Part shown: positions 44,951 to 48,081 of the stretch, piece after piece
How the letters are laid out: each line of letters opens with the position of its first letter
Position numbering within the stretch: the stretch's first letter is position 1
Assembly (NCBI RefSeq): GCF_000023865.1
Contig: NC_013159.1
Span: forward strand, 3,064,001 to 3,128,000
DNA length: 64,000 nucleotides
Source of the DNA: Saccharomonospora viridis DSM 43017
Lineage (GTDB): Bacteria > Actinomycetota > Actinomycetes > Mycobacteriales > Pseudonocardiaceae
Reading direction: 5' to 3'
Notes under the pieces: model-generated
Seen by the model: only the letters and a program-made list of their open reading frames with translations
What the model was told of the DNA's origin: nothing
Database searches by the model: none
Translations under genes and position numbers: made by a program

Positions 44951-45841
44951 CTACTGTTCGTCGGTTACCGTTTCCCTGAGGAAGAACGCGCCCCATCCGC
45001 GATACGGTCGCCACCGTTCGGTCACCACCCCCACGTCGTCGACGCCGTAGCATCGCCGCAGCGTGGTGGCGAGTCCGGCTTCCGACGCGGGGAACAGATC
45101 AGGATGTCCTGCTCCTCTGCCGACGACGAGTTCGGCCGAGAACGGGCCGAGCCCCGGCAGTCGCCGCACCGCCTCCACAGCCGCAAAGACGGGAAGCGCC
45201 CGCAACCGGTCGGCGTCGAGCTCTCCCGACAGCGCTGCGTCGGCTATCGCGCTCAGACTGCGTCGTTTCCGTTCCGAGACACCGTACGAGGAATCCAGGA
45301 CGCCGAGCTCCTGCGGCACGGGAAAACTGGGTATCTCACGGCCACCCACGTGGAACACTCGGCCCCGGTTCATGGCGATCCGCCGGATGACGGCGTCGGC
45401 CTGGGCCACCCGGAACCGATGACAGACGACGGCCCAACACGCCGCTTCATAAGGCGAACAGAACAGTACGGGTCGCAGTCCTGGGTTCGCGCGGAGACGG
45501 TGCCTCAGCACCGGATCGCCGTCCGCCACCGCGGCGAACCCACCACCGTCGACGTCGAGCGACAAGGCCCGACACACCTGCTCCACCACGGTCTCCACGC
45601 TCTCCGGCGGTGCGTCCACCTCGATCCGGACGACACCGGGTGCCCGTTGCCGCACGAGCACACCGGCATAACACCATCGTCGCTCCACGGGAAACGCGAG
45701 CGACACGGTCGCCGGTTCGCTCCCGGCGACGATTCCGCAGCGCTGGAAACGCGAAAGATACATGGCGTAATCCGCAAGATCGATCACACCACGTATCTCC
45801 GCGTCGACGACCGTGCTCCGACCGGCCCCCGCCGTTGCCAT
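44951..45841 (-). CDS. DNA-3-methyladenine glycosylase-like protein (AlkA family)
   Basis: A 296-residue AlkA-like protein. The helix-hairpin-helix LPGLGPFSAELVVGRG (about residue 225) precedes HPDLFPASEAGL. In AlkA-type glycosylases the catalytic aspartate falls in this FPxDD segment; here Ser-Glu is seen and no aspartate is present at that point. Base-excision activity is thus uncertain. The N-terminal AlkA-like beta domain is recognisable but weakly conserved. The ATG at 45841 follows GGGAGGG. Confidence 0.75.
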   Translation of the reverse strand: MATAGAGRSTVVDAEIRGVIDLADYAMYLSRFQRCGIVAGSEPATVSLAFPVERRWCYAGVLVRQRAPGVVRIEVDAPPESVETVVEQVCRALSLDVDGGGFAAVADGDPVLRHRLRANPGLRPVLFCSPYEAACWAVVCHRFRVAQADAVIRRIAMNRGRVFHVGGREIPSFPVPQELGVLDSSYGVSERKRRSLSAIADAALSGELDADRLRALPVFAAVEAVRRLPGLGPFSAELVVGRGAGHPDLFPASEAGLATTLRRCYGVDDVGVVTERWRPYRGWGAFFLRETVTDEQ

Positions 45842-46206
45842 GATCCCTCCCACCGACCGTGAATCGCGTGAACCGTCGATCCGAAACCGTTGCGCCACCG
45901 AACGGTTCACCACCGAGCGGTTCACTCGCCACCACGCACACCCCGACACCGAGGATGCTGTGCACACAGTGGACACTCGGACACCCGTTGCGGCCGAGTA
46001 CCGCACGAGCGCGTCGACACAGACGCTAGGGCCGGGTGATCCGAATCGGAAGGAACCGAGTACGCGAACGGTAACGGCCACACACGAAGTTGCTCTCGTC
46101 GAGTGATGACACGACAAGGGCTGTTGGAAGTGGGCCCAGCCGGAAAACGAACCGAGCCCGCTCTCGACCGAGGAAAATCGGTTGCTGCCGTCGTTATCGT
46201 GGTCGC
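45842..46206. other. 365-base region upstream of the erm leader
   Basis: No convincing gene is visible; minus-strand frames continuous with the AlkA-like gene lack coding character. Its right end holds the -10 box (46195-46200) for the leader ORF of erm. Confidence 0.45.
46195..46200 (+). promoter_or_regulatory. -10 box of the erm leader
   Basis: TATCGT, exactly 6 bases before the ATG of the leader ORF, the same spacing as the other leaderless genes in this window. Confidence 0.5.
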
Positions 46207-46248
46207 ATGCGTTGTTTCACCGTTGTGATCCGACCCTGGCTGCCCTGA
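46207..46248 (+). CDS. 13-residue candidate leader peptide upstream of erm
   Basis: The ATG at 46207 opens MRCFTVVIRPWLP and stops at 46248, ending 206 bases before erm. The start lies 6 bases after a TATCGT box, so translation would begin at the 5' end of the mRNA. The last codons lie in a hairpin (46239-46255), and a second hairpin follows at 46271-46291. This layout resembles the ribosome-stalling leaders that control inducible erm genes by attenuation. The peptide has no arrest motif that I recognise (no IFVI or RLR), so the role is inferred from position. Confidence 0.5.
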   Translation: MRCFTVVIRPWLP

Positions 46249-46255
46249 CGGCAGC
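46239..46255 (+). promoter_or_regulatory. hairpin overlapping the end of the erm leader ORF
   Basis: GCTGCC-CTGAC-GGCAGC includes the last two leader codons and the stop. A ribosome on the end of the leader would block it. Confidence 0.4.
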
Positions 46256-46270
46256 GGCCGCGATCCTTCC

Positions 46271-46291
46271 CGGCGTGGGTCTTTCACGCCG
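46271..46291 (+). terminator. candidate attenuator hairpin between leader and erm
   Basis: CGGCGTG-GGTCTTT-CACGCCG, perfect 7-base arms, 22 bases after the leader stop. There is no T tract. A further hairpin, CGCGCG/CGCGCG, lies at 46374-46394. Confidence 0.4.
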
Positions 46292-46454
46292 TCACACACG
46301 CTGATTCCGCCGCCCTCTCGGCCTTCTTGCATGACGGGCTCAGGAGTCCGCGGTCGCTGCGACACGACGTCCTCGCGCGTTTCGTCGACGCGCGCTGTCG
46401 ACCACGACGTGACCGCTTCCGACCGCTTCTTCCGGATTCCCACGGAGCCCTCGC

Positions 46455-47264
46455 ATGCCCAGGAACAGGCGGAGCCGCCTCCGCGCCGATCGACCCAACC
46501 CTTCCGGAGTCCACTTCCTCGTCTCGAAGGACGTACTCGACACGCTGGTACGCACGTGTACACCCGGTCCGGACGATCTCGTCCTCGACCTCGGCGCCGG
46601 ACCCGGTGTGGTGACCGCCGCACTGGCCCGCACCCACGCCCGAGTGCTCGCCGTCGAACGCGATCCCGAGTTCGTGCGCACGCTGAACTCACGCTTCCGC
46701 CACAACGACCGGGTCCGCGTCATCCAAGCGGACATCCGCACGGTCGCGCTGCCTCGCCGCGATTTCCTCGTCGTGGCGAACCCTCCGTACTCACTGTCGA
46801 CACCGCTGCTGCGCCGCTTGCTCGGCGGCCGTAGACCCAACCTGCGCAGCGCGGCGTTGACCGTGGAGTGGGGATTCGCCAAACGCGTCACGACACCCGT
46901 CCCCGCATCCCGGGAACTCGCGTGGTGGGCAAGCCGATTCGACATCAGGCTCGTTCGGAAAGTACCCGCCGACCACTTTCGACCACAGCCCACTGTGGAC
47001 TCCGCCGTGCTCGCCATACGACGGCGACCCCTCAGCCGCACCACCGAGATCCTGCTCGGCGAGATCCTCGACGCGGTGGAGCGATCCCCCTACCGGTCGG
47101 CACACGCCCTCGTTCGGCGTATCGGCCTTGGCGACGCCCGCCGACTTCTCAAGCGATGTGACATCGAACCCGGCAGACGTGCGGCGACCATCACACCACG
47201 GGAGTGGAGGAGAGTCGCCGAGACCGTCTCGGCGCGTCTCGGACGAGGAACCGACGCGGTATGA
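46455..47264 (+). CDS. erm: Erm-type 23S rRNA (adenine-N6) methyltransferase
   Basis: A 269-residue rRNA adenine methyltransferase. SAM motif I is DLGAGPGVVTAAL (about residue 45), motif IV the catalytic NPPYSLSTPLLRRLL (residues 109-123), and the N-terminal SGVHFLVSKDVL corresponds to the Erm SGQHFL motif. The NPPY (rather than NLPY) motif and the streptomycete/ErmE-like style favour Erm over KsgA. It would methylate A2058 of 23S rRNA and give macrolide-lincosamide-streptogramin resistance. GGAG lies 7 bases upstream of the ATG. A leader ORF with hairpins in front suggests induction by drug-stalled ribosomes. Confidence 0.85.
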   Translation: MPRNRRSRLRADRPNPSGVHFLVSKDVLDTLVRTCTPGPDDLVLDLGAGPGVVTAALARTHARVLAVERDPEFVRTLNSRFRHNDRVRVIQADIRTVALPRRDFLVVANPPYSLSTPLLRRLLGGRRPNLRSAALTVEWGFAKRVTTPVPASRELAWWASRFDIRLVRKVPADHFRPQPTVDSAVLAIRRRPLSRTTEILLGEILDAVERSPYRSAHALVRRIGLGDARRLLKRCDIEPGRRAATITPREWRRVAETVSARLGRGTDAV

Positions 47265-47317: not shown

Positions 47318-47323
47318 TTGCCA

Positions 47324-47932
47324 GTGACCGACCGTCTTGTCTGGATCGACTGCGAGATGACGGGCCTCGACCTTGCCAAGGACGCCCTCATCGAGATCGC
47401 CGTGCTTGTCACGGATGCCGAACTGAACGTGTTGGGCGACGGTGTCGACCTCGTCATCCACGCCGACGACGAGGCACTGGCGAACATGCCCGACGTCGTC
47501 CGCGAGATGCATGCCCGCTCGGGTCTCACCGAGGAGGTTCGTCGTTCGACGATGACGCTCGAGGAGGCCGAACGACGTGCGCTCGCCTACATCCGCGAAC
47601 ACGTCCCGGAGCCTAAAACGGCGCCGTTGGCGGGGAACTCGATCGCCACCGACCGCGGCTTCATCGCGCGGGACATGCCGACGTTGGATTCGTACCTGCA
47701 CTACCGGATGGTGGACGTGTCCTCCATCAAGGAATTGATCCGCCGTTGGTACCCCCGCATCTACTACGCGAAGCCGGAAAAGGGCCTCGCGCACCGGGCC
47801 CTGGCCGACATCAAGGAGTCGATCGGGGAGCTGAAGTACTACCGGAAGACGGCGTTCGTGCCGCAACCCGGACCGAGCAGTGAAGAGGCCAGGGCCGCTG
47901 CCGAGGAGGTGGCACGTTCCCAGGAGGGGTAG
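47324..47932 (+). CDS. orn: oligoribonuclease
   Basis: A 202-residue DEDDh exonuclease that degrades 2-5 nucleotide RNAs, including the products of c-di-nucleotide breakdown. The four acidic residues and histidine are visible: [21 protein letters not shown], and the C-terminal [15 protein letters not shown]. The GTG start is chosen over a TTG two codons earlier because of the -10 box 6 bases upstream. It is followed by a tRNA-His gene. Confidence 0.95.
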
Positions 47933-48000: not shown

Positions 48001-48073
48001 GTGGGTGTAGCTCAGCTGGTAGAGCACCTGGTTGTGGTCCAGGGGGCCGCGGGTTCAAGTCCCGTCACTCACC
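48001..48073 (+). tRNA. tRNA-His (GTG anticodon)
   Basis: The cloverleaf folds completely. Acceptor GTGGGTG pairs with CACTCAC, the D arm is GCTC/GAGC, and the anticodon arm is CCTGG-TTGTGGT-CCAGG with anticodon GTG. The T arm is GCGGG-TTCAAGT-CCCGT. The base before the acceptor (48000) is G and the discriminator is C, the extra G-1:C73 pair required by histidyl-tRNA synthetase. CCA is not encoded. Confidence 0.97.
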
Positions 48074-48081
48074 CCGGTTGG

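What the first reader, a model, noticed from the sequence alone, without database searches (positions are those of the whole stretch)
46195..46455. Leaderless 13-codon leader ORF and hairpins in front of an erm methyltransferase
A TATCGT box lies exactly 6 bases before an ATG that opens a 13-residue peptide ending RPWLP, followed by stop. The last codons lie inside one hairpin (46239-46255). A second perfect 7-bp hairpin (46271-46291) and a third (46374-46394) fill the 206-base gap before erm. Inducible erm genes are often controlled by drug-dependent ribosome stalling in such leaders. The peptide lacks the known IFVI or RLR arrest motifs, so this could be a new macrolide- or ketolide-sensing attenuator that works from a leaderless start.
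Basis: partly seen in the sequence, partly recalled or inferred. Interest (0 to 1): 0.75.

Follow-up and report, generated by a model that had tools for sequence, protein, structure and literature searches.

The report
Leaderless leader peptide controlling erm
Just ahead of a macrolide-resistance methyltransferase gene in a compost actinomycete sits a tiny gene that apparently begins at the very first base of the messenger RNA; relatives keep it with an antibiotic-stalling signature and a matching RNA helix, so it is very probably a drug sensor of a known kind with an unusual start.

Summary
In detail: box, 13-codon ORF, stop and three hairpins lie where stated. The genome has the exact size published for Saccharomonospora viridis P101T. 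Relatives decide the matter. A TANNNT box 6-8 nt before an ATG/GTG opening a short ORF with Arg/Lys-X-Arg/Lys near its end stands upstream of 82 of 97 related erm loci examined, against 2 such ORFs in 128 kb of window. The three genus orthologs also have 13-codon leaders, ending RPRLS, RLRLS, RLRLF. So the window belongs to a leaderless-type leader family, not a new motif class. Its RPW fits +X(W) and XP(W), published erythromycin arrest motifs; Trp there relieved ketolide stalling of ErmDL. Most likely: an ErmC/ErmD-like translational attenuator on a leaderless transcript. Weak points: no transcript-start, stalling or induction data; a global folding test did not beat shuffles; the window has diverged near its Shine-Dalgarno.

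The parts
46173..46185 (+). GAAAATCGGTTGC, conserved promoter element
   Evidence: In 36 clade-A loci aligned on TANNNT, positions -22 to -10 read GAAAACCGGTTGC by majority. A pattern of this element, box and start codon occurs once in this whole genome and once in one other of 12 genus genomes searched.
46195..46200 (+). TATCGT, -10-like box 6 nt before the leader ATG
   Evidence: Sequence. In 36 clade-A loci the spacing is 6 nt in 23 and 7 nt in 13 (the loci were selected to have TANNNT at 6-8 nt).
46207..46248 (+). leader ORF MRCFTVVIRPWLP, probably leaderless
   Evidence: Same 13-codon length in the three genus orthologs.
46231..46239 (+). Arg-Pro-Trp codons, predicted arrest site (Pro in the P site, Trp in the A site), at the place of +X+ in relatives
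   Evidence: First + of +X+ at -5 from the stop in 67 of 86 leaders chosen; RPW fits +X(W) and XP(W).
46239..46255 (+). hairpin 1:2 around the leader stop
   Evidence: Shuffle p 0.15 in the window; a 1:2 duplex has p <= 0.05 in 15 of 79 loci.
46251..46261 (+). segment 2, just after the stop; pairs with 46350-46360 (11 bp, one G-U)
   Evidence: conserved and covarying in relatives.
46350..46360 (+). segment 3
46271..46291 (+). second hairpin, between segments 2 and 3
   Evidence: Other stems lie in that interval in relatives; at p <= 0.05 against shuffles in 4 of 25 loci.
46374..46394 (+). third hairpin, between segment 3 and the Shine-Dalgarno
   Evidence: A stem of at least 5 bp in this interval in 24 of 25 A_long loci, G+C-rich, with sequence changes such as GCGTGC/GCACGC; but at p <= 0.05 against shuffles in only 1 of 25.
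46329..46349 (+). 5' arm of the helix predicted to hold the erm Shine-Dalgarno and start codon shut
   Evidence: 18 pairs in the minimum-energy fold. No comparative support: its 3' arm lies where the window differs from relatives.
46434..46458 (+). 3' arm of that helix
46444..46447 (+). GGAG, erm Shine-Dalgarno
46455..47264 (+). erm-like 23S rRNA adenine-N6 methyltransferase, 269 aa
   Evidence: NCBIfam Erm23S_rRNA_broad 3e-49, 167.6 bits, below its cut-off of 212; Pfam RrnaAD 120.2 bits, cut-off 24.

Best explanation
46195-46454 is the control region of a macrolide-inducible erm gene. Transcription probably starts at or next to the A of the ATG at 46207, so the 13-codon leader is translated from a leaderless mRNA (inferred). 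Without drug, ribosomes finish the leader; the leader end pairs with the stretch after its stop (1:2), segment 3 joins the downstream structure and the erm Shine-Dalgarno is hard to reach. With a macrolide in the tunnel the ribosome stalls with Pro of Arg-Pro-Trp in the P site. Its leading edge then reaches about the stop codon: segment 1 is covered, most of segment 2 is free, 2 pairs with 3 as soon as 3 is made, and the erm start is released for translation. Shown here: the conserved leader, the usually fixed place of the arrest motif, the covarying 2:3 helix in relatives, and on average easier Shine-Dalgarno access once segment 3 is taken away in two of three groups. Inferred: leaderless start, stalling, order of folding, and the translational rather than transcriptional level. 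From its RPW the window's leader is predicted to answer erythromycin-type drugs and hardly ketolides.
For: Leader type in 82 of 97 erm upstream regions against 0.006 expected per 400 nt. +X+ starts exactly five residues before the stop in 67 of 86 chosen leaders. At -5, 71 of 82 distinct leader sequences have Arg, by five different codons, and at -3, 66 of 82 have Arg, by three, which points to selection on the peptide. 2:3 helix on a 32-sequence alignment: 95.3% of cells paired (0 of 500 shuffles as high), 8 cells changed on both sides (0 of 500), covariation score 0 of 500, 3 pairs with such changes (4 of 500); partner slid by 1-3 columns 21-65% paired. RNAalifold on the same alignment predicts this helix and nothing else. 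The A-U to G-C change lies in three separate places of the Erm tree (L043; L048-L051; L053; read off by eye). Own 2 with own 3 binds at -21.9 against -18.2 kcal/mol with swapped partners, 0 of 10,000 permutations as good. Mean Shine-Dalgarno openness rises at segment 3: from 0.35-0.41 to 0.50 in A_long (25 loci), from 0.31-0.34 to 0.49 in group B (13 loci). RPW needs two changes on the Erm tree, each among RPR/RLR leaders; +X(W) and XP(W) are erythromycin motifs. Leaderless ATG/GTG initiation is documented in mycobacteria. Promoter-plus-start pattern found once in the genome.
Against: No transcript ends, no ribosome data, no induction data. A global equilibrium fold test (75 loci, stalled against free) gave openness 0.33 to 0.43, the same as shuffles, 0.34 to 0.43; the window itself did not change, 0.26 to 0.26. 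In A_short (11 loci) the step at segment 3 goes the other way. Masking segment 3 against masking elsewhere: p = 0.086 over 48 loci (16 up by more than 0.1, 8 down), and in the window masking lowers openness, 0.26 to 0.20. In the window, forcing 2:3 raises openness only to 0.36-0.40 and costs about 5-10 kcal/mol, so it would have to be a kinetic state. The window has about 33 extra bases just before the Shine-Dalgarno and lacks the CATG core of a CGTCATGA/TCATGACG repeat that 27 of 32 aligned loci keep on both sides (counted). In one search the number of further pair types is not raised (479 of 500 shuffles as high). In one search the own segment 3 is the best partner of its segment 2 in only 10 of 41, and the segment-3 windows were chosen by pairing, which flatters. 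A 2:3 duplex passes p <= 0.05 in 36 of 79 loci and 1:2 in 15 of 79.
Confidence: 0.78

Rival explanations
1. Same sensor, but the output is transcriptional: stalling prevents premature termination (intrinsic or Rho-dependent) in the 206-nt gap, as described for resistance ABC-F genes.
For: Attenuation of ARE-ABCF genes is described as abortive transcription termination, and in C. difficile cplR both levels act (PMC10201436, passages). The equilibrium translation-level fold test was negative, and in the window's predicted fold the Shine-Dalgarno is not held by segment 3 itself.
Against: No terminator-like site in 46100-46500, by a scan that needs a T run. A step in mean Shine-Dalgarno access at segment 3 in two groups, 38 loci. 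A GGAG at a sensible distance before an in-frame start was found in 75 of 86 loci.
Confidence: 0.2
2. The window's copy is drifting: the arrest motif has changed to RPW and the Shine-Dalgarno region carries extra bases, so erm here may be constitutive or silent although relatives are inducible.
For: RPW in only 3 of 86 chosen leaders (L005, L048, L051); repeat next to the Shine-Dalgarno degraded; no modelled switch at equilibrium.
Against: Leader frame, length, start, stop, box and segments 2 and 3 all kept; the 2:3 duplex in the window has shuffle p 0.005; RPW arose separately elsewhere, in L048 and L051 as RPWPW, and is in an erythromycin motif class.
Confidence: 0.15
3. The leader senses general translation stress or arginine shortage rather than a macrolide in the tunnel.
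For: Arg-rich leader ends; the whiB7 leader of actinobacteria is said to respond to several inhibitor classes, and whiB7 to starvation (PMC12121999, passages).
Against: The downstream gene is an Erm-like methyltransferase; Arg, any residue, Arg at a usually fixed place with Leu or Pro at -4 in 59 of 82 distinct leaders is the macrolide motif, not a run of Arg codons.
Confidence: 0.08
4. Chance ORF and chance hairpins.
For: The hairpins of the window alone do not beat shuffles.
Against: 82 of 97 relatives against 0.006 expected per region; covariation.
Confidence: 0.01

Closest known systems
ErmDL-ermD and the RLR class of erm leaders
   Same: Arg-X-Arg in the leader, erm downstream, RNA rearrangement expected; stalling with X in the P site (PMC8298421, passages).
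   Different: Here the leader has no 5' UTR by its promoter spacing; the window has Trp in the place of the second Arg.
ErmCL-ermC translational attenuator
   Same: Stalled ribosome reshapes the RNA and exposes the ribosome-binding site (PMC13410324, passages); the four-segment scheme is recalled.
   Different: No IFVI motif (motif recalled); the 2:3 helix is the best supported part here; Shine-Dalgarno shielding differs between groups and in the window is not by segment 3 itself.
ErmSV leader of Streptomyces (sequence likeness recalled, from no call)
   Same: L151 encodes a leader that I recall as ErmSV-like, with GTG 7 nt after TAGCGT, so leaderless-type leaders of actinomycete erm genes may already be in print in a paper that I could not open.
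   Different: 37 residues with RMR mid-leader, unlike the short leaders here.
whiB7/wblC uORF
   Same: Actinobacterial upstream ORF through which antibiotics control a resistance regulator (PMC12121999, passages).
   Different: Controls a transcription factor; according to the passage its stalling has not been tested.
Leaderless mRNAs of mycobacteria
   Same: [quoted passage not shown] hundreds of small 5' ORFs suggested (PMC4633059, passages).
   Different: The passages read do not concern erm.

Membership tests
erm leader-peptide attenuators (RLR / +X+ class) | short ORF upstream of erm on the same strand | tested here: met
erm leader-peptide attenuators (RLR / +X+ class) | Arg/Lys-X-Arg/Lys in the leader | tested here: not met
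   Window has RPW; 82 of 97 related loci have +X+ in a leader of this type. The window is therefore placed with its orthologs and under the wider erythromycin motifs +X(W)/XP(W), not filed under +X+.
erm leader-peptide attenuators (general) | alternative helices linking leader and gap, with covariation | tested here: met
   2:3 helix; 1:2 weak.
erm leader-peptide attenuators (general) | Shine-Dalgarno shielded when not induced, freed when induced | tested here: inconclusive
   For: (groups A_long and B). Against or neutral: A_short in 37, window in 61.
erm leader-peptide attenuators (general) | drug-dependent stalling and induction | not testable with these tools
   Needs toeprinting and reporters.
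Leaderless mRNA | -10 box 6-7 nt before ATG/GTG | tested here: met
   Six nt in the window; 6 or 7 nt in 36 of 36 aligned clade-A loci, which were selected to have TANNNT at 6-8 nt.
Leaderless mRNA | mapped transcription start at the start codon | not testable with these tools
   No transcript data.
WhiB7-activated promoter | AT-rich stretch immediately upstream of a -35 hexamer at normal distance from -10 | tested here: not met
   GAAAA and CGGTTG are present, but TTG begins only 13 nt before TANNNT; criterion from passages of PMC3905903, normal spacing recalled.
Erm 23S rRNA methyltransferase | scores above the curated NCBIfam cut-off | tested here: not met
   167.6 bits against 212; still its best family, ksgA 116.9 against 171. 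The stronger RrnaAD match of the genome, probably KsgA, is another gene. Hence 'Erm-like'.

The most novel reading that the evidence does not exclude
A large, old class of actinobacterial erm switches works from leaderless mRNAs, with the stall site, stop codon and switching helix in one register; within it the stall motif has moved at least twice from RXR (macrolide and ketolide) to RPW (macrolide, not ketolide), so that drug specificity evolves through single residues of a leader peptide.
Probability: 0.4. Interest if true: 0.7.

Novelty: new variant of a known kind. Interest (0 to 1): 0.55.

Why it matters
Leader-peptide control of erm is textbook in Firmicutes, where leaders have ordinary ribosome-binding sites (recalled). 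A type kept in most of the 97 Pseudonocardiaceae-family loci examined, and found at 15 of the 30 best-scoring erm loci of a class-wide sample, that starts on the first base would make leaderless ribosomes the sensing particles, and would test whether macrolide arrest works the same after leaderless initiation. The natural RXR and RPW leaders offer a ready comparison of macrolide and ketolide sensing. It also suggests that resistance in these genera may be inducible and missed in drug-free tests (inference).

Tried and rejected
WhiB7 promoter: the AT-tract and GGTTG look like one, but the spacing to the -10 box is too short. Intrinsic terminator: none found. Sigma-70 consensus promoter: none found by a strict scan, so the -10 box rests on comparison alone. 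Known RNA family: one match up to E = 1, antisense P17 at 15.9 bits, gathering score 45. Global equilibrium on/off folding as proof of the switch: no better than shuffles. Masking of segment 3: p = 0.086. The CGTCATGA/TCATGACG repeat as a covarying helix: 90.6% paired but no change on both sides, so unproven. Genome-wide scan in the Python box: not available. In print: the searches listed no paper that, by its title and abstract start or by the passages I read, describes leaderless erm leaders in Pseudonocardiaceae; most listed papers were not opened. A 2024 survey of erm upstream regions (PMC11264731; one section read and a term search) has neither 'leaderless' nor 'Amycolatopsis' in its main text. 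Subscription papers, including the ErmSV paper, were not held, so priority is not settled.

Full report
What is there. The window is bases 3,064,001-3,128,000 of a single-contig genome of 4,308,349 bases, the exact size published for Saccharomonospora viridis P101T (PMC3035233, passages). At 46455-47264 lies a 269-aa gene whose best NCBIfam family is the broad Erm 23S rRNA methyltransferase (3e-49, 167.6 bits, below the cut-off of 212; ksgA 116.9 bits); among solved structures a small-subunit methyltransferase A and Erm(38) score alike (1.7e-18 and 2.2e-18). It is a divergent Erm-like protein. Every element in the finding is at the stated place.

Relatives. Of 12 genomes of the genus, four including the window's own carry this gene; the other three orthologs are 68, 66 and 61% identical. 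All four have a leader of exactly 13 codons with a TANNGT box six bases before ATG, ending RPWLP here and RPRLS, RLRLS and RLRLF in the others. Of 390 genomes of the family, 229 had a match at E <= 1e-16. I examined 97 loci: 30 delivered fetched further down the ranking (two places, in G016 and G381, passed over), and seven more from the genus; the rest were not looked at. A TANNNT box 6-8 nt before ATG/GTG with an ORF of 8-25 codons and +X+ in the last seven residues is upstream of 82 of 97; in 67 of 97 the motif sits exactly at -5 to -3 from the stop. The box spacing and the motif were learned from the same loci. The window's 128 kb of both strands holds two such ORFs, 0.006 per 400 nt.

The 15 without: L005 (window), L048 and L051 (these three have RPW); L054 (an odd leader); L089 (RLR leader, box 11 nt away); five loci of one genus (L078, L079, L080, L086, L087); three of another (L100, L103, L105); and two where the match begins inside the gene (L107, L108). 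Elsewhere in the class, with a looser rule (box 5-9 nt away, up to 40 codons, Trp allowed in the second place, 550 nt searched), 15 of the 30 best-scoring Erm loci have the type, 14 of them outside the family; 13 of the 15 are followed by TAGCGGCGG at the stop.

Peptide. 86 leaders were chosen by eye by box and motif (or RPW), so these counts describe a selected set. Among their 82 distinct DNA sequences, position -5 is Arg in 71 (five codons), -3 Arg in 66 (three codons), -4 Leu in 41 or Pro in 18. Varied codons with a fixed residue point to the peptide as the selected thing. Trp stands at -3 in three leaders, two of which carry it doubled (RPWPWRA). On the Erm tree of 42 loci the RPW label needs two changes, each inside RPR/RLR groups. 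Seip et al. [quoted passage not shown] Beckert et al. (PMC8298421, passages) report that Trp in place of the second Arg of ErmDL relieved telithromycin stalling, whereas erythromycin stalling tolerates almost any residue there. Hence the prediction of macrolide but hardly ketolide sensing. Both studies used E. coli ribosomes.

RNA. For 79 loci I compared the stretch just after the leader stop (segment 2) with the gap downstream: the best duplex beats dinucleotide shuffles at p <= 0.05 in 36 of 79, in the window at p = 0.005. In a MAFFT alignment of 32 clade-A loci, made without regard to pairing, ten columns after the stop pair with a conserved block upstream of erm in 95.3% of cells, with 8 cells in three pairs changed on both sides; 0 of 500 shuffles reach the pairing, the cells or the covariation score, 4 of 500 reach the three pairs, and the number of further pair types is not raised. 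RNAalifold finds this helix alone. In the tree the A-U to G-C change lies in three separate places (L043; L048-L051; L053; by eye). The shuffle control does not remove relatedness, so the separate places are the safer evidence. With swapped partners the duplex weakens from -21.9 to -18.2 kcal/mol, 0 of 10,000 permutations as good; the own partner is the best one in 10 of 41, and segment 3 was picked by pairing.

Switch. With X of the motif in the P site four codons before the stop, a ribosome edge 15-17 nt ahead lies about at the start of segment 2 (footprint size recalled): it hides segment 1 and leaves most of 2. If 3 is removed by a 2:3 helix, mean Shine-Dalgarno access rises at just that boundary in A_long (25 loci) and B (13 loci), but falls in A_short (11 loci). 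Other tests were negative or weak: global on/off folding equals shuffles (75 loci); masking gives p = 0.086 over 48 loci. In the window the Shine-Dalgarno and ATG are predicted in an 18-pair helix, 46329-46349 with 46434-46458, that would cross 2:3; forcing 2:3 lifts openness from 0.26 to 0.36-0.40 at a cost of about 5-10 kcal/mol. So the switch is plausible as a folding-order effect but is not shown for the window, whose Shine-Dalgarno region has about 33 extra bases compared with relatives.

Promoter. GAAAACCGGTTGC, by majority, lies 10-22 nt upstream of the TANNNT box in 36 clade-A loci. It recalls WhiB7 sites but lies too near the -10 box. This fits a promoter used for erm alone rather than a regulon in this genome.

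Verdict. A leaderless-type, drug-stalled leader peptide controlling erm is very likely; the working mode follows ErmC/ErmD; the new parts are the leaderless start as a family trait and the RPW variant. Direct evidence of start, stalling and induction is missing.

Noticed in passing
L078, L079, L080, L086, L087 (one genus) and L100, L103, L105 (a second genus): Related erm genes without any TANNNT/+X+ leader in the stretch searched; possibly constitutive or controlled otherwise.
   Followed up: no
L130-L139, L142, L143, L148, L151, L155: Leaderless-type +X+ leaders in front of erm across the class (L143 is of the window's family, the rest are not); 13 of the 15 followed by TAGCGGCGG at the stop.
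   Followed up: partly
alignment A2 columns 201-208 and 260-267: CGTCATGA ... TCATGACG inverted repeat next to the Shine-Dalgarno; CATG core on both sides in 27 of 32 loci, degraded in the window; no covariation, role unclear.
   Followed up: partly
L054, leader at -197 to -137 from the match start: A leader of the same start type whose end reads ARRPWARAV, unlike the ARLRRA of several leaders of its genus.
   Followed up: no
window 47318-47932 and 48001-48075: RNase T-type exonuclease gene (orn-like; Pfam) and tRNA-His follow erm; in L007 and L008 the sequence beyond erm also looks orn-like by eye.
   Followed up: no
window 44951-46117, minus strand: Next open frame upstream, 388 aa from a TTG, divergent from the leader; the 292-aa part that I scanned (44951-45829) has no Pfam match.
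   Followed up: no
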